From contig JAUMYK010000003.1 of the NCBI GenBank assembly GCA_030528665.1, forward strand, positions 1 to 62,807: a stretch of 62,807 nucleotides of DNA. The letters run 5' to 3'. The position numbers and the translations under genes are program-made. Under the pieces are notes generated by a model. That model did no database searches and was not told the DNA's origin. It saw nothing but the letters and a program-made list of their open reading frames with translations. This document shows, piece by piece, positions 3,653 to 59,249 of this stretch. Position 1 is the first letter of the stretch. Each line of letters starts with the position of its first letter. Source of the stretch: a bacterium (GTDB taxonomy: Bacteria; Patescibacteria; JAEDAM01; Absconditabacterales; Absconditicoccaceae).

Positions 3653-3990
3653 TCTCAGGATAAGGAAAGAGCTGAACTTTGAGCCTGTAACAGTGACTTT
3701 GAAAGATAGAGGAGTGCGGTTGATCTGCTTGAATTTGAAGAGGAGATAGTGTTTGCATCGTGTTGGGCTATCTAGTCGTCTTCATCGATGCAGGCTTTTT
3801 TTGATTTGCATTCAGTGGGAGAAAGGATATACTGAGCATACCTTTTCTACTGCTAGAATACGAAAGTCCCAAGGTAGAGATATAGTGGATACGAGAGATG
3901 AGGAGGATGGACAAGAGAGGCGAACCTTTCTATTCTAGTTGAAAAAAAATCAAAAATCAGGCTTTTTTATCTTTTTTGACCTAGAAAATT
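3653..3990. other. 338-bp intergenic stretch before valS
   Basis: Holds a 10-bp-stem terminator (3751-3802) and about 190 bp of valS leader. I looked for a T-box antiterminator bulge and found none, and no tRNA. A copy of the A-tract/CAGG/T-tract motif lies at about 3945-3970, just before the valS start. Confidence 0.5.
3751..3802 (+). terminator. Terminator between the HAD gene and valS
   Basis: GTTTGCATCG (3751-3760) pairs with CGATGCAGGC (3786-3795) and is followed by seven T. It probably ends the HAD transcript; it could also act as a leader attenuator for valS. Confidence 0.75.
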
Positions 3991-6645
3991 ATGTTGGACA
4001 AATATCAGGCGAGCAGCCTCGAATCCAAGCGATACCAAATTCGAGAAGAAAAAAAATACTTTTCAGCTACTATGGATCCCAATAAGCCCAATTATAGCAT
4101 CGTAATCCCTCCTCCAAATGTGACAGGAATCTTGCATATGGGACATGTTTTAGATGAGGCGATCCAAGATGTCTTGATCAGACGAAAGAGGATGTCAGGT
4201 TTCAATACGCTTTGGATGCCAGGGACTGATCATGCTGGAATCGCTACGCAAAACAAGGTAGAAAGAGCCCTCGCTGATGAAGGAAAAACCAAAGAAGACA
4301 TCGGAAGAGAAGCTTTTATCGAAAAAACTCGAGAGCGAAAGCACAAATACGGTGGCATCATCACTCAGCAACAGAGAAAAATTGGAGCTTCGTTGGATTG
4401 GGACAGAGAGAGATTTACGATGGATGAAGGACTTTCAGAAGCGGTGAAAAAGCATTTTGTAGACCTTTATCGTGATGGCTTGATCTATCAGGGAGAATAT
4501 ATGGTCAATCGATGTCCAAGGTGCTGAACTGCGCTTGCTGATGATGAGGTGGAATTTGCAGACAAAGACTGAAATCTCCGAGAAATTAAATATCCGATCG
4601 TAGGAACCAACGAAAGCCTGATCCTTGCGACCACGAGACCTGAAACGATGCTGGGAGACACTGGTGTCGCTGTGCATCCTGATGATCCGAGATACCAGCA
4701 CTTGATCGGGGAAATGGTCGAGGTGCCGTTGACGGGGCGTCAGGTGCCGATTGTAGCGGATCGCTATGTAGAAATGGACTTTGGAACTGGAGTCGTAAAG
4801 ATGACACCAGCTCACGATCCCAATGATTTTCAGGTAGCACAGAGAACAGGGCTTGAGATGCTGGTAATCTTCACTCCAGATGCAAAAATCAATGAAAACT
4901 GATGAAAATACGCAGGTTTGGATCGTTTCCAAGCGAGAAAACAAATCGTTGCAGACCTCGAGGAGCAAGGTTTTCTTGTGCAAACCAAAAAACACAACCA
5001 CGCAGTCGGACATTGCTATAGATGTAATACCGTGATCGAACCTCGCGTTTCTCGCCAGTGGTTTGTGAAAATGCAGCCTTTGGCTGAGCCAGCTTTGGAA
5101 GCCGTAAGATCAGGAAAGATCACGATCCAACCTAAAAGATGGGAAAAAGTCTATTATAATTGGCTGGAAAATATCAGAGATTGGTGTATTTCGAGGCAAA
5201 TTTGGCGAGGACACAGAATCCCAGCTCGATATGGACCAGATGATCAGGTTTTTGTAGCGATGAATGAAAACGAAGCTCTAGAACAGGCAAAAGCTCACTA
5301 TGGAAAAGAAGTCAGTCTGACGCAGGAAACTGATGTGTTGGATACTTGGTTCTCTTCTGCACTTTGGCCGTTTTCTACGATGGGGCGACCGGAGAAAAAC
5401 ACCGACCTCCTTCAGCATTTTTATCCTACTTCTACGCTCGTGACTGGAGCGGATATTATCTTTTTCCGAGTGGCGAGAATGGTGATGATGGGACTCTATC
5501 AGATGAAGGAAATCCCTTTCCGCGATGTGCTTTTCCACGGGATCGTGAGAGATGAACAAGGCCGCAAAATGTCAAAGTCGCTTGGAAACTCGCCTGATCC
5601 GCTCAAATTGATCGAGGAATATGGTGCAGATGCGATCAGATTTACGATGATTTACAATACTTCCGCAGGTCAAGATGTGCATTTCTCTGAAAAGCTGCTT
5701 GAAATGGGAAGAAACTTCGCAAATAAAGTCCGAAATGCAACCAATTTCGTGCTGATGAATCTTGCCGACTTTGATGCAAAAAAAATCCAAAAAGCTGATC
5801 TTCACTTTGAACTCGTGAATCAGTGGATTTATTCGAGATTGCACGCGACCATCGCAGAGGTTAATCAAAAACTCGAAACTTACACCCTCGATGAAGCCGC
5901 AAAACTCGTGTATGAATTTATCAGAGGCGATTTCTGTGATCGATATGTGGAAATGGCGAAAGTCCGCCTCTATGCCAATGAAGACCTCCAAAGCAAGCAG
6001 ACTGCTCAGCGAGTGCTTCGTGATGTGCTTGAAAGCTCGCTCAAGCTCTTGCATCCGTTTATGCCGTTCATCACTGAAGAACTCTGGCAACAGATCAAGC
6101 TTGAGGGAGAAACAATTATGCTTGCAGACTTTCCAAAAAGCGAAAAAAGTCTGATACTCCCTGAGGTTGAAAATGCAATGTCCTATATTCAAGAGGTGAT
6201 CACGGCACTCAGAAATATCAGAGCAGAAGCCAATATCGCTCCAAGCAAAGAAGTTTCCGCACTGATCAAAACCAATAAGACTCAAGAACTCAGCTACTTG
6301 AGAGCTAATAAAGCCTTTTTGATGAAGCTTGCTAAGCTCGCTTCGCTTGAATTTGGTGCTGAGCTCCAGAAGCCTGAACTTTCAGGATTTAGAGTAGTAG
6401 GGGAGTCTGAAATCATCGTTCCATTGCTAGATTTCCTCGATATTGAGGCAGAAACAACAAAAATTCTGACTCAGATTGAGAAACTCCAACAATGATTGAC
6501 CAATACCAAAGCAAAACTCGAAAATGAAACCTTCACTTCCAAGGCTCCAGCTGCGGTGATTGAAAGAGAGCGTAATAATCTCGCTGACTATCAGCAAAAA
6601 ATTGAGAAATTGAAGGAGAATTTAGTACTCTTGAGTGGAAAATAA
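3991..6645 (+). CDS. valS: Valyl-tRNA synthetase
   Basis: 884-residue class I synthetase that charges tRNA-Val. The HIGH-type motif (HMGH, about residue 48) and KMSKS (about residue 526) are both present, along with the editing-domain start ([13 protein letters not shown]) and a C-terminal coiled coil. Five in-frame UGA codons (4525, 4570, 4900, 4903, 6493) are read as Gly. The first completes CPRCG, a conserved zinc-knuckle glycine, and is one of the clearest proofs of recoding here. The stop is TAA at 6643. Length is typical of the bacterial enzyme. Confidence 0.97.
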
Positions 6646-38650: not shown

Positions 38651-38792
38651 CTCCAGTACCAGCAAGTTCCGTAGGTTCCCTTGAAAGAAAGGTGAAAGCC
38701 CAGCGAACGACCCCGGAGCCCACGAAGTGGGAGGGAGTGAGCTTCCGGAGGTAGTCCGTGATAAACAGGTTTACTTACTTGCACTACTGGAG
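38651..38792 (+). repeat. 142-bp element with terminal inverted repeats, copy 1
   Basis: Ends CTCCAGTACCAGCAAGTT and ACTTGCACTACTGGAG are inverted repeats. The core AGCGAACGACC, CGGAGCCCACGAAGTGGG, AGGGAGTGAGCTT matches copy 2 at 46201 closely and the length is identical. Both copies are followed about 45 bp later by a GGCA(A/T)TGCC palindrome in A/T tracts. MITE-like; no transposase is present. Confidence 0.8.
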
Positions 38793-44989: not shown

Positions 44990-46129
44990 TTAGGTAGTAG
45001 GTATATTCCTGAGTTTTTCCCTAATGCATTCTGAAATCAGCTTTCTATCCCATTTTTTATGAGCAAAAGTTTTGAATGCTGACTTGAGCTTCTCGATCTC
45101 TTTACTCTCCACAAGTATTCCACAGTCTTTATCGACCAGTTCTACGCTTGCCCCCTCAGCAAATCCAAAGACCGGAACTCCCATAAGCAAAGCTTCTACC
45201 GTACCAATACCAAAACTTTCTTTGGTGAGATTGATCAGTCCTGCACTGTTACGAATCGTTTCTGCCAATCCCTCTTGCATCCATCAGGTAAAAATAATCG
45301 TTTCTCCAGCTATTGATTTGAGATATTGCTCATCAGGACCGCTCCCTATCATAATCAATGGCAATTTCAAGGCATTAAAAAGCTCAATGATCAGCCCACA
45401 TTCCCTGACAAAATTGACCAACCTCCCCACGCAGACAAAATACGGCTTCGGACGCTGAGTAATTCCTGTGAGCCAGTACTGGTCTCAGACCTTTGGATAA
45501 CGCACTTCGCCCTCCATTCCATAAAGTTCTTTTGCCAGTTGTGCCGTATACTGACTATTGAAAACGACCTTATCAAACTCGCGATACTGGAGATCCCACT
45601 TGCGAAGCCTTGGTGTAATCCAGTCAAAAAGCCATCTTTTCCATCCTTTTAGTTTCCCTGCATATTCCTCGTGATGACTCCAGATGTATTGCATCGGAGA
45701 GTGGAGGCAGAGACTGGTTTTTACTCACGCTATTGGCTCGATATTTTTCGCAATCGCAAACGAAGAAATCTGAATCTGATCAGGTTTTCGCCTTTTTATC
45801 TTGCGAGACAAAAGTTTCATCAGCTGAGGATAAAAAAGCATCAAATTACGATAATCAAAAATGCTAGACAATAACGGAACTTTCCTTTGTTTAAACAAAA
45901 GAAAAAGCTGATTGATCCATTGCGGCAATGCCTGCACGATTTTGACCTGATATTTTTTTCCTTTTCCCCCTGGAATCTCAATTTCCAACTCCTCAAATTC
46001 ACTAATCAAGGTAAAAAGCTGAATCTCTACCTCAGCTCCCTCTTGCTTCAGCGTTTTTTGCAGCAAATCCTCGAGTACTTTCAAGACCCCACCTGGCATC
46101 GTCCAACAGTTGACAAACGCAATCCTCAT
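44990..46129 (-). CDS. Family 4 glycosyltransferase
   Basis: 379 residues; UGA-Gly at 45725, 45485 and near 45282. The start MRIAFVNCW...GGV and the C-terminal TGWMQEGLAE and ESFGIGTVEALLMGVPVFG (the E-x7-E of GT4) define the family. Such enzymes transfer sugars from nucleotide donors to lipids or polysaccharides at the inner face of the membrane. It stands alone here. Donor and acceptor unknown. Confidence 0.88.
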
Positions 46130-46200: not shown

Positions 46201-46342
46201 CTCCCAGCACCAGCAAGCTCCATAGGTATTCTGGAAAGCAAGACAAGCTCTAGCGAACGACCTCGGAGCCCACGAAGTGGGAGGGAGTGAGCTTTGAGAT
46301 GATACTTTCAATGCGAGATTTACGAACTTGCTTTGCTGGGAG
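46201..46342 (+). repeat. 142-bp element with terminal inverted repeats, copy 2
   Basis: Ends CTCCCAGCACCAGCAAG and CTTGCTTTGCTGGGAG are inverted. Core CGGAGCCCACGAAGTGGG and AGGGAGTGAGCTT are identical to copy 1 at 38651, with the same total length and the same orientation. Confidence 0.8.
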
Positions 46343-46492
46343 TAGACTTTTTTGTTACTTTTTGGGGCAATGCCAAAAAGTAAATAAGACTAAAAGTGAA
46401 TGATCTTCCCCACATTTTCTAAACATTACAACAGTTCTAGTATAGGAGAAAAGCCCTTTTTTTCAAGAGAAAGATTTTTCTTACATTTTCTC

Positions 46493-46520
46493 TTGCATTT
46501 GAGGAAAAAAATGATACAGT
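46493..46520 (+). promoter_or_regulatory. Promoter of the asn operon
   Basis: TTGCAT-N16-TACAGT. The predicted RNA start is near 46527, 14 nt before the leader ATG. Confidence 0.7.
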
Positions 46521-46540
46521 GAAGATAGATTTAATTGAAT

Positions 46541-46606
46541 ATGCAAATGGCTATGACGCTTCATCTTACGACTTTGATGGTAAATAATAATCTACGGACA
46601 CCGTAG
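46541..46606 (+). CDS. Asn-rich leader peptide of the asn attenuator
   Basis: 21 residues. Residues 15-17 are three consecutive Asn (AAT AAT AAT, 46583-46591), followed by LRTP and TAG. The peptide would be a ribosome-stalling sensor of charged tRNA-Asn with no function of its own. The three Asn codons directly abut RNA arm 1 (46592-46597), the classical geometry. No UGA inside. Confidence 0.75.
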   Translation: MQMAMTLHLTTLMVNNNLRTP

Positions 46607-46678
46607 AGAGATTGAGTCGTAGCCAAAAAAACTCCTAAAATCTTCTGCGGTATCAAGACAACCGTAGGGGATTTTTTT
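46592..46678 (+). promoter_or_regulatory. Asparagine-responsive transcription attenuator
   Basis: Arm 1 CTACGG (46592-46597), arm 2 CCGTAG (46601-46606), arm 3 CTGCGGT (46645-46651), arm 4 ACCGTAG (46661-46667) then seven T. 1 pairs with 2, 3 with 4 (terminator, strengthened by AAAATC/GATTTT), and 2 can pair with 3 (antiterminator). Ribosome stalling at the Asn codons would cover arm 1 and free arm 2 for arm 3, letting asnA-asnS be transcribed. A ribosome reaching the TAG would cover arms 1 and 2 and allow termination. Confidence 0.75.
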
Positions 46679-46706
46679 AATCTGTTTTTTTATTCCTTAT
46701 ACAATA

Positions 46707-47723
46707 ATGATGATGAAAACCTATCTTGAGAAGCTTAGTGCTTTACCGCGTTTGGATATCAGATCCACACAAAAGGCTATCCAGCTTGTCAAAAGAAACT
46801 TTGAGCAGTATTTAGAAACCTTTTTATGACTTGAAAAAATTGAAGCTCCACTTTTTCTCAGCAAAGAGAGTGGACTCAATGATGCCCTTACAGGAGTGGA
46901 AAAAGCCGTCAGCTTCCAGATTCCTTTTCTCTCGGATGAGCAGGCAGAGGTTGTTCATTCCTTAGCAAAGTGGAAAAGAATGGTGTTGTATACCTACGGA
47001 TATGATCCCGGAGAGGGGATATATACCGATATGAGAGCAATCCGTGCAGAGGAAGAGCTTGATGCGATCCATTCACTCTATGTCGATCAGCGAGACTGGG
47101 AAAAGATCATCACTCAAGAACAAAGGACACTTGATACTCTGAAAACAACGATAACGAAAATCTATCAAGCGCTTTTGGCGACAGAGGAGCTGCTCACTAA
47201 ATCCTTCCCTCAGCTGAAGCCCTTTCTTGCCAAAGAATTGTATTTTATCTCAGCACAAGACCTAGCAGATCGTTATCCTGAGCTTACTGCCAAGGAGAGG
47301 GAAACGGCAATCTGTAGAGAATATGGTAGCGTCTTTGTGATGCAAATTGGTATGCCGCTCAGCTCAGGGCTCCCACATGAGAAAAGAGCTCCAGACTATG
47401 ATGATTGGCTACTCAATGGTGATTTACTTGTCTATTATCCTCCTTTGAAGCAGGCAGTAGAGCTTTCATCGATGGGGATTAGAGTAGATGCTGAGCGTCT
47501 TCTCCATCAACGAGCGCTGCGTCATCCTGATAAAAAGCTCGATGCTCCCTATCATCAAATGATTGTGGATGGAGTATTGCCTTATACGATTGGAGGAGGG
47601 ATTGGGCAGTCAAGAGTAGTGATGTTGTTACTTCACAAACTTCATATTGGTGAGGTGCAGGTTTCCCTTCGAGGAAAAGAAATTGAAACCTGATCTGCAA
47701 GTCAAGGTATTCCTTTGTTGTAA
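46707..47723 (+). CDS. asnA: Aspartate-ammonia ligase
   Basis: 338 residues (332-336 if a later ATG of the ATGATGATG run is used). Makes asparagine from aspartate, ammonia and ATP. The fold is that of class II tRNA synthetases; visible are SKESGLNDALTGVEKAV, LYVDQRDWEK, the MQIGMPLSSGLPHEKRAPDYDDW region and GGGIGQSR. UGA-Gly at 46827 and 47691. E. coli AsnA is 330 residues. First gene after the attenuator; asnS follows by 67 bp. Confidence 0.95.
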
Positions 47724-47790: not shown

Positions 47791-49182
47791 ATGCAAACTA
47801 CCGCAATCAAAACCCTTTATCATAGTTATGAACCCCTGATTGGAAGCCAGATTATCGTAAATGGATGGATCAGATCACTCAGAGATTCCAAAACTTTTGG
47901 ATTTATCGAACTCAATGATGGTTCTCATCTCAAAAATTTGCAGGTCGTATTCGAGTCAGATTTGGAAAACTTTGAAGAAATCACCAAATTCAGCACAGGA
48001 AGTAGTATCCAAGTACAAGGAGAACTCATCAAATCCGAAGGTGCAAAACAAGCTTTTGAACTCAAAGCCAGCAAAGTAACGTTGATCGGAGCGGCAGATG
48101 AAAGCTTTCCTCTCCAGAAAAAAAGGCATTCCTTTGAATATCTGAGAACTATCGCCCATCTCAGACCAAGAACCAATACCTTTTCTGCGGTGTTTAGGGT
48201 AAGAAGCCTGCTTTCTTTTGCGATTCATCAATTTTTCAATGAGAGAGGCTTTATTTGGGCGCATACGCCGATTATTACCGCTTCTGATGCCGAAGGGGCA
48301 GGAGAGATGTTTCAAGTAACGACCCTTGACCTTGATAATCCTCCAAAAAATGAAGAAGGAAAAACTGACTTCAGCAAAGATTTTTATGGAAAAAAAGCTG
48401 GTCTTACCGTGAGTGGGCAACTTGAAGGAGAGACCTTTGCTACTGCATTTGGGAAGATTTATACCTTCGGACCTACTTTCCGTGCAGAAAATTCAAATAC
48501 CACCAGACACCTATCAGAATTCCGAATGATCGAGCCAGAAATCGCATTTGCAGATTTGGAAGACAATATGCAACTTGCAGAAGATATGATCAAATATGTA
48601 TTCAGCTACGTCCTCGAAAACGCTCCAGCTGAGATGGATTTTTTCAATCAATTTATCCTCCCAGGGGTAAAAGAGAGAGCTGAAAAACTCGTCAACTCCA
48701 GCTTTGCGAAAGTCAGCTATACCGAAGCGGTAAAAATGCTCCAAGAATCTGGTCAAAAATTCGAATATGCTCCAGAATGGGGAATCGACCTGCAAACCGA
48801 ACACGAAAGATACCTCTCAGAAAAAATCTTCAACGGACCAGTTTTCATCACTGATTATCCAAAAGATATCAAAGCCTTCTATATGAAGCTCAACGAAGAT
48901 GGGAAAACCGTAAGAGCGATGGATATGCTCGTACCTGGAATCGGAGAACTCATCGGAGGATCGCAGAGAGAGGATGATTTTAAAAAGCTTGAAACCAGAA
49001 TGCAAGAGATGGATTTGAATACTGAGGACTACAGCTGGTACCTTGATTTGAGAAAGTACGGTAGCGTGCCACACGCAGGGTTTGGAGTAGGGTTTGAAAG
49101 ATTAGTGATGTATATTACTGGGATGGAGAATATCCGTGATGTGATTCCATTCCCAAGGACGCCAAAGAATTGTGAGTTTTAG
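47791..49182 (+). CDS. asnS: Asparaginyl-tRNA synthetase
   Basis: 463-residue class IIb synthetase. N-terminal OB fold ([20 protein letters not shown]), motif 2 ([21 protein letters not shown]) and motif 3 ([15 protein letters not shown]) are clear. Together with asnA it forms a unit that makes Asn and charges tRNA-Asn, fitting the shared attenuator. No internal UGA. Start at the ATG 47791, which matches family length. Confidence 0.97.
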
Positions 49183-58544: not shown

Positions 58545-58574
58545 TTGATTTTTCTTCCAAAATACATATATACT
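58545..58574 (+). promoter_or_regulatory. Promoter of the rplJ-rplL operon
   Basis: TTGATT-N18-TATACT, just upstream of the L10 leader. An AAGTCTGACTTT motif ends next to the -35 box. Confidence 0.65.
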
Positions 58575-58582
58575 AGTCATCT

Positions 58583-58668
58583 TTGCCGAAGACAGTAGGT
58601 GAACGACCTTGTGAAGTTCATAAATCCTACCGAGGTTATCCATATCGCTTTTCAGACTTAAATCTTTT
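58583..58668 (+). promoter_or_regulatory. Ribosomal protein L10 leader
   Basis: The RNA contains GCCGAAGACAGTAGGTG, a hairpin region, AATCCTACC and GAGGT in the order seen in the L10 leader family; GTAGG pairs with CCTAC. L10(L12)4 binds this kink-turn structure and represses its own translation. It lies between the promoter and the rplJ start with the usual spacing. Confidence 0.8.
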
Positions 58669-58736
58669 TTTAGGAATGAATGACGAAGATAACTCTGGCA
58701 ATGAGTTATTTTTTATTTCTAGGTTTTACACTACTC

Positions 58737-59249
58737 ATGACAATCTCAAAAGAGAAGAAAATTGAGCTGGTAAAACAGTATGTGCAAGATCTTCAATCTG
58801 CAAAGAATGTAGTAGTATTGCAGCAGTCTGGACTGCCTGTGACACTCTCTACTTCTATTAGAAAAGAAGTCATTGGAGCTGCTGGTAAATATAATGTTAT
58901 CAGAAAAAAACTGTTTTTGCTTGCTCTTAAAGAGGCTGGCTTTGATGCTGTAGCTGAAAGCGATCTTGATGGTGCGGTAGTAGTTCTTTATGCAAATGAA
59001 GATGAATACGCTCCGATGAAGGTTGTTAATAAGTATGCAAAACAAGTGGCAGGAGACAAGGAGCTTAAAGCTTCACTCAAATTCCTTGGAGGATGGTATG
59101 ACAAAAAATGGCATAATGCTGAATATGTGACCGAATTGGCAAACATCCCATCCAGAGAAGAACTCTTGTCCAAATTGGCATACTTGTTCAATTACCCAGT
59201 ACAATCATTTGCTGCGGTGCTTGATCAAATCTCAAAAAAAGCTGAATAG
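58737..59249 (+). CDS. rplJ: Ribosomal protein L10
   Basis: 170 residues from the ATG at 58737 (MTISKEKKIELV). L10 anchors L7/L12 dimers on the 50S stalk. The N-terminal rRNA-binding domain and C-terminal helix (QSFAAVLDQISKKAE) match the family. Chosen start fits the usual 165-175 residue length; the upstream in-frame ATG at 58680 would be in the leader RNA. First gene of the stalk operon. Confidence 0.93.
   Translation: MTISKEKKIELVKQYVQDLQSAKNVVVLQQSGLPVTLSTSIRKEVIGAAGKYNVIRKKLFLLALKEAGFDAVAESDLDGAVVVLYANEDEYAPMKVVNKYAKQVAGDKELKASLKFLGGWYDKKWHNAEYVTELANIPSREELLSKLAYLFNYPVQSFAAVLDQISKKAE

What the first reader, a model, noticed from the sequence alone, without database searches (positions are those of the whole stretch)
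46493..46678. Classical Asn attenuator controlling asnA-asnS in a UGA-recoded CPR bacterium
The leader has a promoter, a 21-codon peptide with three consecutive Asn codons, and four RNA arms. Arm 1 CTACGG directly follows the Asn codons and arm 2 CCGTAG ends at the stop codon. Arm 3 CTGCGGT can pair with arm 2 or with arm 4 ACCGTAG, and arm 4 is followed by seven T. This is the exact geometry of ribosome-mediated attenuation known from amino-acid operons of Proteobacteria. The downstream genes make Asn and charge tRNA-Asn, so the sensed amino acid matches. I know of no description of such an attenuator in this group.
Basis: partly seen in the sequence, partly recalled or inferred. Interest (0 to 1): 0.88.

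Follow-up and report, generated by a model that had tools for sequence, protein, structure and literature searches.

The report
Asparagine attenuator in an Absconditabacterium
A tiny asparagine-rich leader peptide and a switchable RNA hairpin sit in front of the asparagine-making and asparagine-charging genes of a recoded bacterium, so the cell very probably switches these genes on when charged asparagine tRNA runs short; the mechanism is textbook, but the amino acid and the bacterial group look new for it.

Summary
A 21-codon ORF (46541-46606) with Asn-Asn-Asn lies 100 nt before asnA-asnS, followed by four RNA arms. In a ribosome-footprint folding model arm 3 is released just after the last Asn codon, as in eight E. 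coli leaders, and a ribosome on the stop codon covers arm 2. No Rfam family matches at threshold; there is no T-box. The host is very probably an Absconditabacterium: named AsnS relatives, UGA read through, CGA as Trp. Best explanation: ribosome-mediated transcription attenuation sensing Asn-tRNA charging (0.85). I found no described Asn attenuator, and none in the candidate phyla radiation, in the papers searched. Not shown: conservation (no relative's DNA could be reached), promoter, expression. New member of a known kind; a fifth arm pair (P0) may lock untranslated leaders in the terminating form.

The parts
46541..46606 (+). Leader ORF, 21 codons, MQMAMTLHLTTLMVNNNL(CGG)TP, stop TAG 46604-46606; alternative TTG start at 46535. 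CGG (codon 19) reads Arg in table 25 but probably Trp in Absconditabacteria
   Evidence: Sequence; only one of 844 short ORFs of the window with three consecutive Asn codons; CGG meaning from the literature and from CGA in this window
46583..46591 (+). Three consecutive Asn codons (AAT AAT AAT), the proposed sensing codons
   Evidence: Sequence; arm-3 sequestration falls right after the last of them
46591..46597 (+). Arm 1 (TCTACGG)
   Evidence: Pairs 7 bp with 46601-46607, -7.8 kcal/mol
46600..46613 (+). Arm 2 (ACCGTAGAGAGATT), contains the stop codon; covered by a ribosome with the stop codon in the A site
   Evidence: 13 pairs with arm 3, one bulge; 2:3 region -15.0 kcal/mol; 14 of 5000 shuffles as strong
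46637..46651 (+). Arm 3, shared by antiterminator and terminator
   Evidence: Pairs with arm 2 or arm 4
46661..46675 (+). Arm 4, 3' side of the terminator hairpin
   Evidence: 3:4 hairpin -17.4 kcal/mol; region fold matched by 0 of 2000 shuffles
46672..46678 (+). Seven-T tract of the intrinsic terminator
   Evidence: Sequence; fourth most stable of 79 hairpin-plus-T sites at -10 or better in the window
46548..46557 (+). P0 5' arm, inside the leader ORF (codons 3-6)
   Evidence: Pairs with 46616-46625; 8 of 5000 shuffles as strong
46616..46625 (+). P0 3' arm; together with 1:2 gives -25.7 kcal/mol in the untranslated leader
46707..47723 (+). asnA, aspartate-ammonia ligase
   Evidence: TIGR00669 333.9 bits against cut-off 292.8; PF03590
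47791..49182 (+). asnS, asparagine-tRNA ligase
   Evidence: NF003037 679.8 bits against cut-off 414

Best explanation
It is a ribosome-mediated transcription attenuator that senses charged tRNA-Asn and controls asnA-asnS. When Asn-tRNA is short, the ribosome translating the leader stalls on one of the three AAT codons and covers arm 1. Arm 2 then pairs with arm 3 as soon as arm 3 is made, the terminator cannot form, and RNA polymerase goes on into asnA-asnS. When Asn-tRNA is plentiful, the ribosome reaches the UAG stop and covers arm 2; arms 3 and 4 form the terminator and transcription stops near 46678. An untranslated leader folds P0 and 1:2 and also terminates. Shown here: ORF, arms, predicted energies, gene identity, model geometry. 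Inferred: translation of the ORF, the stall, termination and readthrough in the cell, co-transcription of asnA and asnS.
For: Three consecutive Asn codons in 1 of 844 short ORFs, the one before asnA-asnS; joint chance 1 of 20,000 shuffles. Mutually exclusive 2:3 (13 pairs, -15.0) and 3:4 (-17.4) helices. Before arm 4 is made, 2:3 pairs at 0.93, 0.93 and 0.78 with Asn1, Asn2 or Asn3 in the A site, and 0.00 with the stop codon there. Sequestration of arm 3 is 0.85, 0.85 and 0.72 on the three Asn codons and 0.42 on the next codon; in eight E. coli leaders it also falls at or within about three codons of the end of the control-codon run. The sensed amino acid matches both downstream genes. Hairpin-plus-T sites occur through the window, 79 at -10 or better (no chance control). 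E. coli pheM-pheST is a precedent of a leader peptide before a synthetase operon. A Listeria leader tested by mutation has similar predicted energies in print, -10.3 for the first structure and -17.1 for the terminator (PMC5864092, passages).
Against: No comparative support: no DNA of a code-25 relative could be fetched. No promoter match and no clear Shine-Dalgarno before the leader, asnA or asnS (by eye). The simple terminator scan missed the 3:4 hairpin because of its 9-nt loop. With the full transcript at equilibrium the terminator wins even with a stalled ribosome (0.69, 0.93 and 0.99), so the switch must depend on co-transcriptional order; the E. coli leaders mostly behave alike in the model, pheL being the clear exception. 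Stalls anywhere upstream of the Asn run also sequester arm 3 (0.79-0.85), so the fold fixes only the downstream edge of the sensing window. About 0.4 remains after the drop, and the no-ribosome state keeps 0.56 with an assumed start at 46519. The model is rough: for hisL it gives 0.60 at the stop codon, against that leader's known behaviour.
Confidence: 0.85

Rival explanations
1. A T-box riboswitch: uncharged tRNA-Asn binds the leader RNA directly, as before some asnA genes of Firmicutes.
For: Three of 40 related asnA loci scanned carry an Rfam T-box immediately upstream of asnA (L001, L006, L010), so a T-box is a known control of this gene.
Against: No T-box match in the window at gathering level nor at E up to 10 in 46400-46760; no TGGNACC core in the leader; the leader carries an Asn-run ORF instead.
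Confidence: 0.02
2. A plain terminator or partial terminator without amino-acid sensing; the ORF, the Asn run and arms 1 and 2 are accidental.
For: Hairpin-plus-T sites are common here: 79 at -10 or better in 62.8 kb, both strands. A loose detector gives 35 ORF-plus-two-helix hits in the window. The 1:2 region alone is not very unusual, 84 of 2000 shuffles.
Against: Only this hit of the 35 has both helices at -15 kcal/mol or better; 1 of 844 ORFs with an Asn run; joint 1 of 20,000. The neighbouring upstream gene lies on the minus strand, so no plus-strand gene just upstream needs a terminator here.
Confidence: 0.05
3. The switch responds to translation in general, or to the rare CGG codon (codon 19, probably Trp), rather than to Asn.
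For: Stalls upstream of the Asn run also sequester arm 3 in the model. CGG is rare, 16 of 16,330 codons.
Against: A ribosome with CGG in the A site already lets arm 3 go (0.40), so a CGG pause favours termination. The Asn run sits at the edge and matches the genes.
Confidence: 0.05
4. The hairpins are bound by a protein (for instance AsnS or another RNA-binding protein) that decides between them, and the ORF is incidental.
For: The strong P0 + 1:2 structure (-25.7 kcal/mol) could be a protein site; autoregulation of synthetases is known (recalled: E. coli ThrS).
Against: No Rfam protein-binding leader matches at 46400-46760; it would not explain the Asn run or the stop codon inside arm 2.
Confidence: 0.03

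Closest known systems
E. coli pheM-pheST attenuator (Rfam Phe_leader)
   Same: [quoted passage not shown] alternative pairings; ORF of similar size (14 against 21 codons); a drop of arm-3 sequestration after the control codons.
   Different: Senses Phe, in a gammaproteobacterium; Rfam's Phe_leader does not match the window.
E. coli thr, leu, trp, his, phe and ilv leaders
   Same: Ribosome position on the leader peptide chooses antiterminator or terminator (mechanism recalled).
   Different: Other amino acids, biosynthetic operons; a long-range pair like P0 was not looked for in these.
Firmicutes asnA under a T-box
   Same: Same gene, same kind of signal (tRNA-Asn charging, specificity not checked here), premature termination (3 of 40 loci).
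   Different: tRNA is read by RNA directly; no ribosome or leader peptide.
Leader-peptide attenuators outside Proteobacteria: Actinobacteria trp, trpS, leuS (PMC1262725), bacilli his (PMC2965389), Listeria ilv-leu Rli60 (PMC5864092)
   Same: Leader peptides with runs of, or rich in, the regulated amino acid, some before synthetase genes (passages read).
   Different: PMC2965389 and PMC1262725 do not hold the words asparagin-, asnA or asnS in their main text; other phyla; other amino acids.

Membership tests
Ribosome-mediated (leader-peptide) transcription attenuator | Short translatable ORF with a run of codons for the sensed amino acid | tested here: met
   21 codons, NNN; 1 of 844 short ORFs in the window. 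Translation itself not tested.
Ribosome-mediated (leader-peptide) transcription attenuator | Sensed amino acid matches the downstream genes | tested here: met
   asnA and asnS above curated cut-offs
Ribosome-mediated (leader-peptide) transcription attenuator | Mutually exclusive 1:2, 2:3 and 3:4 pairings, 3:4 an intrinsic terminator | tested here: met
   chance controls. Prediction only; the simple terminator scan missed 3:4 for its 9-nt loop
Ribosome-mediated (leader-peptide) transcription attenuator | A stall on the control codons blocks arm 1; a ribosome on the stop codon blocks arm 2 | tested here: met
   Footprint model (footprint length recalled), with eight E. coli leaders as yardstick, hisL deviating at its stop codon
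Ribosome-mediated (leader-peptide) transcription attenuator | Leader and pairings kept in relatives with compensatory changes | not testable with these tools
   No whole genome is held for the window; the one genome-contig scan gave no code-25 locus; four viral-contig scans gave none recognisable as such
Ribosome-mediated (leader-peptide) transcription attenuator | Terminated short RNA, and readthrough that depends on amino-acid supply | not testable with these tools
   Needs RNA data or a reporter
Ribosome-mediated (leader-peptide) transcription attenuator | Promoter before the leader | tested here: inconclusive
   Consensus scan lists no plus-strand site at 46493-46520; the promoter consensus of this group is not known to me
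Rfam leader families (Thr, Leu, Trp, His, Phe) | Match to the family's covariance model | tested here: not met
   No match. With the same library six of the eight E. coli leader regions match one of these families, ilvL matches another cis-regulatory family (Rev39_5p_UTR), and ivbL matches none
T-box riboswitch (RF00230) | Covariance match and TGGNACC antiterminator core | tested here: not met

The most novel reading that the evidence does not exclude
This is the first ribosome-mediated attenuator seen in the candidate phyla radiation and the first that senses asparagine, in a lineage that has recoded UGA to Gly and CGA/CGG to Trp. It is a five-arm variant: the extra P0 pair between the ORF and the RNA just after arm 2 locks an untranslated leader in the terminating form, so the operon is expressed only if the leader is both translated and stalled. 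The near repeat of arm 2 and arm 4 (ACACCGTAGAGAGATT and ACAACCGTAGGGGATT) suggests that it arose on the spot by internal duplication when asnA was acquired.
Probability: 0.4. Interest if true: 0.68.

Novelty: new member of a known kind. Interest (0 to 1): 0.57.

Why it matters
Candidate-phyla bacteria are reduced and mostly uncultured, and little is known of their gene regulation (recalled). A leader that measures tRNA-Asn charging would show that at least one of them tunes amino-acid supply by translation-coupled transcription, so transcription and translation must run close together in this lineage. It would add asparagine to the amino acids read by leader peptides and give another case where one gene (asnA) is under a T-box in one group and a leader peptide in another. 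Because arms, codons and genes match so closely, it is directly testable in an E. coli reporter.

Tried and rejected
T-box: rejected. Rfam family membership: none at gathering level in the leader; eight matches at E 0.27 to 9.9 in 46400-46760, all far below their gathering scores, judged chance. Chance: rejected.

Comparative test: failed for lack of DNA. The single genome-contig scan with AsnA returned 41 loci, none of which by title or open frames looks like a code-25 organism; L038, a Mycoplasmopsis, reads TGA through but is not one. Viral-contig scans with AsnA and with P0003 gave no relative; those with AsnS and with an alignment of 15 AsnS (the window's own P0121 and 14 relatives) gave 7 and 20 loci of 40-59% identity, below the 67-74% of the relatives named as Absconditabacteria, SR1 or Gracilibacteria, and I did not study those loci further apart from L044, L045, L049 and L050. 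Six of 219 AsnA proteins, P0003 and P0241-P0245, carry Trp at conserved Gly columns, the mark of UGA-Gly genes read with a UGA-Trp table, but their DNA is out of reach.

A loose whole-window detector was not specific (35 hits) and recovered only 3 of 8 E. coli leaders (thrL, pheL, pheM), so I used it only for ranking. Asn runs before other asnA genes: 1 of 190 short ORFs at 41 loci, a TTG-start ORF at L036 in an AT-rich genome, judged chance. An AsnA tree of 35 rows puts window AsnA (with P0001) apart from the other six code-25 proteins, but a single origin is not excluded. The valS upstream region was read by eye for a Val leader; none was obvious. find_trnas was a side check, ordinary.

Full report
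THE THING. Between a minus-strand gene with weak, below-cut-off glycosyltransferase matches (about 44990-46129) and asnA (46707-47723), which is followed by asnS (ATG 47791 to 49182), lies the leader. Its transcription start is unknown. Both genes pass curated models: asnA TIGR00669 at 333.9 bits against 292.8, asnS NF003037 at 679.8 against 414. The leader holds an ORF of 21 codons, ATG 46541 to TAG 46604, reading MQMAMTLHLTTLMVNNNLRTP in table 25. Codon 19 is CGG and probably reads Trp (see below). An in-frame TTG at 46535 would add two codons.

THE ARMS. Arm 1 (46591-46597) pairs with arm 2 over 7 bp (-7.8 kcal/mol). Arm 2 (46600-46613) pairs with arm 3 over 13 bp with one bulged G (-15.0 with an inner 4-bp helix). 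Arm 3 (46637-46651) pairs with arm 4 (46661-46675) over 15 bp (-17.4); the seven T at 46672-46678 overlap the end of arm 4. Arm 2 with its context, ACACCGTAGAGAGATT, nearly repeats arm 4, ACAACCGTAGGGGATT. A fifth pair, P0, joins 46548-46557 inside the ORF to 46616-46625; with 1:2 it gives -25.7 kcal/mol in the untranslated leader.

IS IT CHANCE? The leader folds better than all of 200 dinucleotide shuffles, z -4.53. The terminator region is matched by 0 of 2000 shuffles, the 1:2 region by 84 of 2000, P0 by 8 of 5000. The 2:3 duplex is matched by 14 of 5000 shuffles and by 6 of 2599 real tiles of the window. Of 844 short ORFs (8-40 codons, both strands) in the window, 1 has three consecutive Asn codons, and it is this one. 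Asn is 4.1% of codons here, so such a run is expected about 0.0013 times in 21 codons. The combination of an Asn-run ORF with a 2:3 partner (-12 or better) at its stop codon appeared in 1 of 20,000 shuffles. A loose detector gave 35 hits in the window; only this one has both helices at -15 or better. The same detector found 3 of 8 E. coli leaders, so its sensitivity is low.

DOES THE GEOMETRY WORK? I removed the RNA covered by a ribosome (to +15 from the first base of the P-site codon, a recalled figure) and folded the rest. With Asn1, Asn2 or Asn3 in the A site, and before arm 4 is made, 2:3 pairs at 0.93, 0.93 and 0.78. With the stop codon in the A site arm 2 is covered, 2:3 is 0.00, and the terminator follows at 0.99. 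Scanning every codon, arm 3 is held by upstream RNA at 0.85, 0.85 and 0.72 on the Asn codons and 0.42 on the next codon. The same scan on eight E. coli leaders (thrL, leuL, trpL, hisL, pheL, pheM, ivbL, ilvL) also drops at or within about three codons of the end of the control-codon run.

Results against the model: stalls anywhere upstream of the Asn run hold arm 3 as well (0.79-0.85); about 0.4 remains after the drop, which one search shows as a weak six-pair alternative with the P0 3' arm; the no-ribosome state keeps 0.56 with an assumed start at 46519; hisL rises again to 0.60 at its stop codon, and leuL and ilvL recover in part. With the whole transcript at equilibrium the terminator wins even with a stalled ribosome (0.69, 0.93, 0.99), so the decision must be made while RNA polymerase is still before arm 4. 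The E. coli leaders mostly behave the same way in the model, pheL being the clear exception.

WHAT IS NOT CONFIRMED. Co-transcription of asnA and asnS across 67 nt is an inference. No DNA of a code-25 relative could be reached: no genome is held for the window, the one genome-contig scan gave 41 loci without a recognisable code-25 one, and four viral-contig scans gave none.

WHO IS THE HOST? Reading TGA through raises coverage by long frames from 0.60 to 0.87. Of the 120 AsnS proteins listed, seven carry a source's name; five of these name Candidatus Absconditabacteria, candidate division SR1 or Gracilibacteria (67-74% identity) and one an uncultured bacterium with recoded TGA. CGA stands at conserved Trp positions: 2 of 3 CGA codons in AsnA (211 homologues), 11 of 14 in ValS (against E. 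coli) and 1 of 1 in AsnS (7 homologues), while AGA and AGG there align mostly with Arg. Shulgina and Eddy 2021 (PMC8629427, passages read) report UGA to Gly and CGA plus CGG to Trp in Absconditabacteria. The window fits that code. My own seven TGA columns in AsnA and ValS never align with Trp, but with Gly in only one, so they do not by themselves prove Gly; the six AsnA proteins below with Trp at conserved Gly columns do so for relatives. CGG is rare, 16 of 16,330 codons; no CGG occurs in the three proteins tested, so its meaning here rests on the paper. The leader's CGG lies past the sensing edge, so a pause there favours termination (0.40).

DISTRIBUTION. Six of 219 AsnA proteins compared, P0003 and P0241-P0245, show Trp at conserved Gly columns, the mark of UGA-Gly genes read with a UGA-Trp table, so asnA occurs in several recoded relatives. 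Equal longest-contig lengths suggest that asnA and asnS share a contig elsewhere (P0001 and P0123, 7,688 bases; P0243 and P0189, 14,576 bases), an inference. In a 35-row tree the window AsnA (with P0001) does not group with the other six, but one origin is not excluded. At asnA loci of other bacteria, 3 of 40 scanned have a T-box just upstream of asnA and one more (L036) has a T-box some 2.2 kb upstream (L041 was not scanned); 1 of 190 short ORFs upstream of 41 loci has an Asn run.

COMPARISON WITH WHAT IS KNOWN. It works like, and meets the sequence-level definition of, a leader-peptide attenuator; the closest in logic is E. coli pheM-pheST. It is not a member of an Rfam leader family and not a T-box. 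Leader-peptide control is described in Proteobacteria and Actinobacteria and, for his genes, in bacilli (PMC2965389 and PMC1262725, passages read), and for ilv-leu in Listeria (PMC5864092, passages); a S. aureus leucine-rich attenuator appears in the listings only. Searches for asparagine, asnA or asparaginyl-tRNA synthetase with leader-peptide and attenuation terms, and for the candidate phyla with attenuation or leader-peptide terms, brought no described Asn attenuator and none in this group (listings; passages of six of the listed papers). The other listed papers were not opened, and the library lacks most subscription journals, so this is not proof of absence.

VERDICT. An ordinary mechanism in an unusual place, with an amino acid not found described. 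New member of a known kind; confidence 0.85 in the mechanism; interest 0.57.

Noticed in passing
46707-47723, 3991-6645, 47791-49182: CGA codons stand at conserved Trp positions (AsnA 2 of 3, ValS 11 of 14, AsnS 1 of 1), so table 25 alone mistranslates this genome; this fits the published Absconditabacteria code with CGA/CGG as Trp.
   Followed up: yes
58568-58724: Rfam L10_leader match (48.3 bits, cut-off 44) at the ribosomal protein L10 gene (frame 58680-59249): a second RNA control element in the window.
   Followed up: no
38715-38733 and 46265-46283, minus strand: Identical 19-mer CTCCCACTTCGTGGGCTCC in two places, none expected in shuffles; perhaps a repeat element or a small RNA.
   Followed up: no
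46355-46383: Perfect 11-nt inverted repeat TTACTTTTTGG / CCAAAAAGTAA with 7 nt between the arms, in the region between the divergent genes.
   Followed up: no
for example 61906, 62691 plus; 29653 minus: Several terminator hairpins share a sequence of the type AAGUCUGAU...GUCAG-CUUUU, as if from one terminator family spread over the genome.
   Followed up: no
3653-3990: About 340 nt between the previous frame and valS, with a strong hairpin and T tract near 3795; no Val leader was obvious by eye.
   Followed up: partly
L049, L050: Two large IMG/VR contigs (395 and 149 kb) encode an AsnS and show more open frame when TGA is read through (0.63 to 0.79).
   Followed up: no
L007, L008, L009, L013, L014: Five asnA loci, three titled Acholeplasmatales and two uncultured bacterium, have a tRNA-Gly(GCC) gene on the opposite strand just upstream of asnA.
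   Followed up: partly
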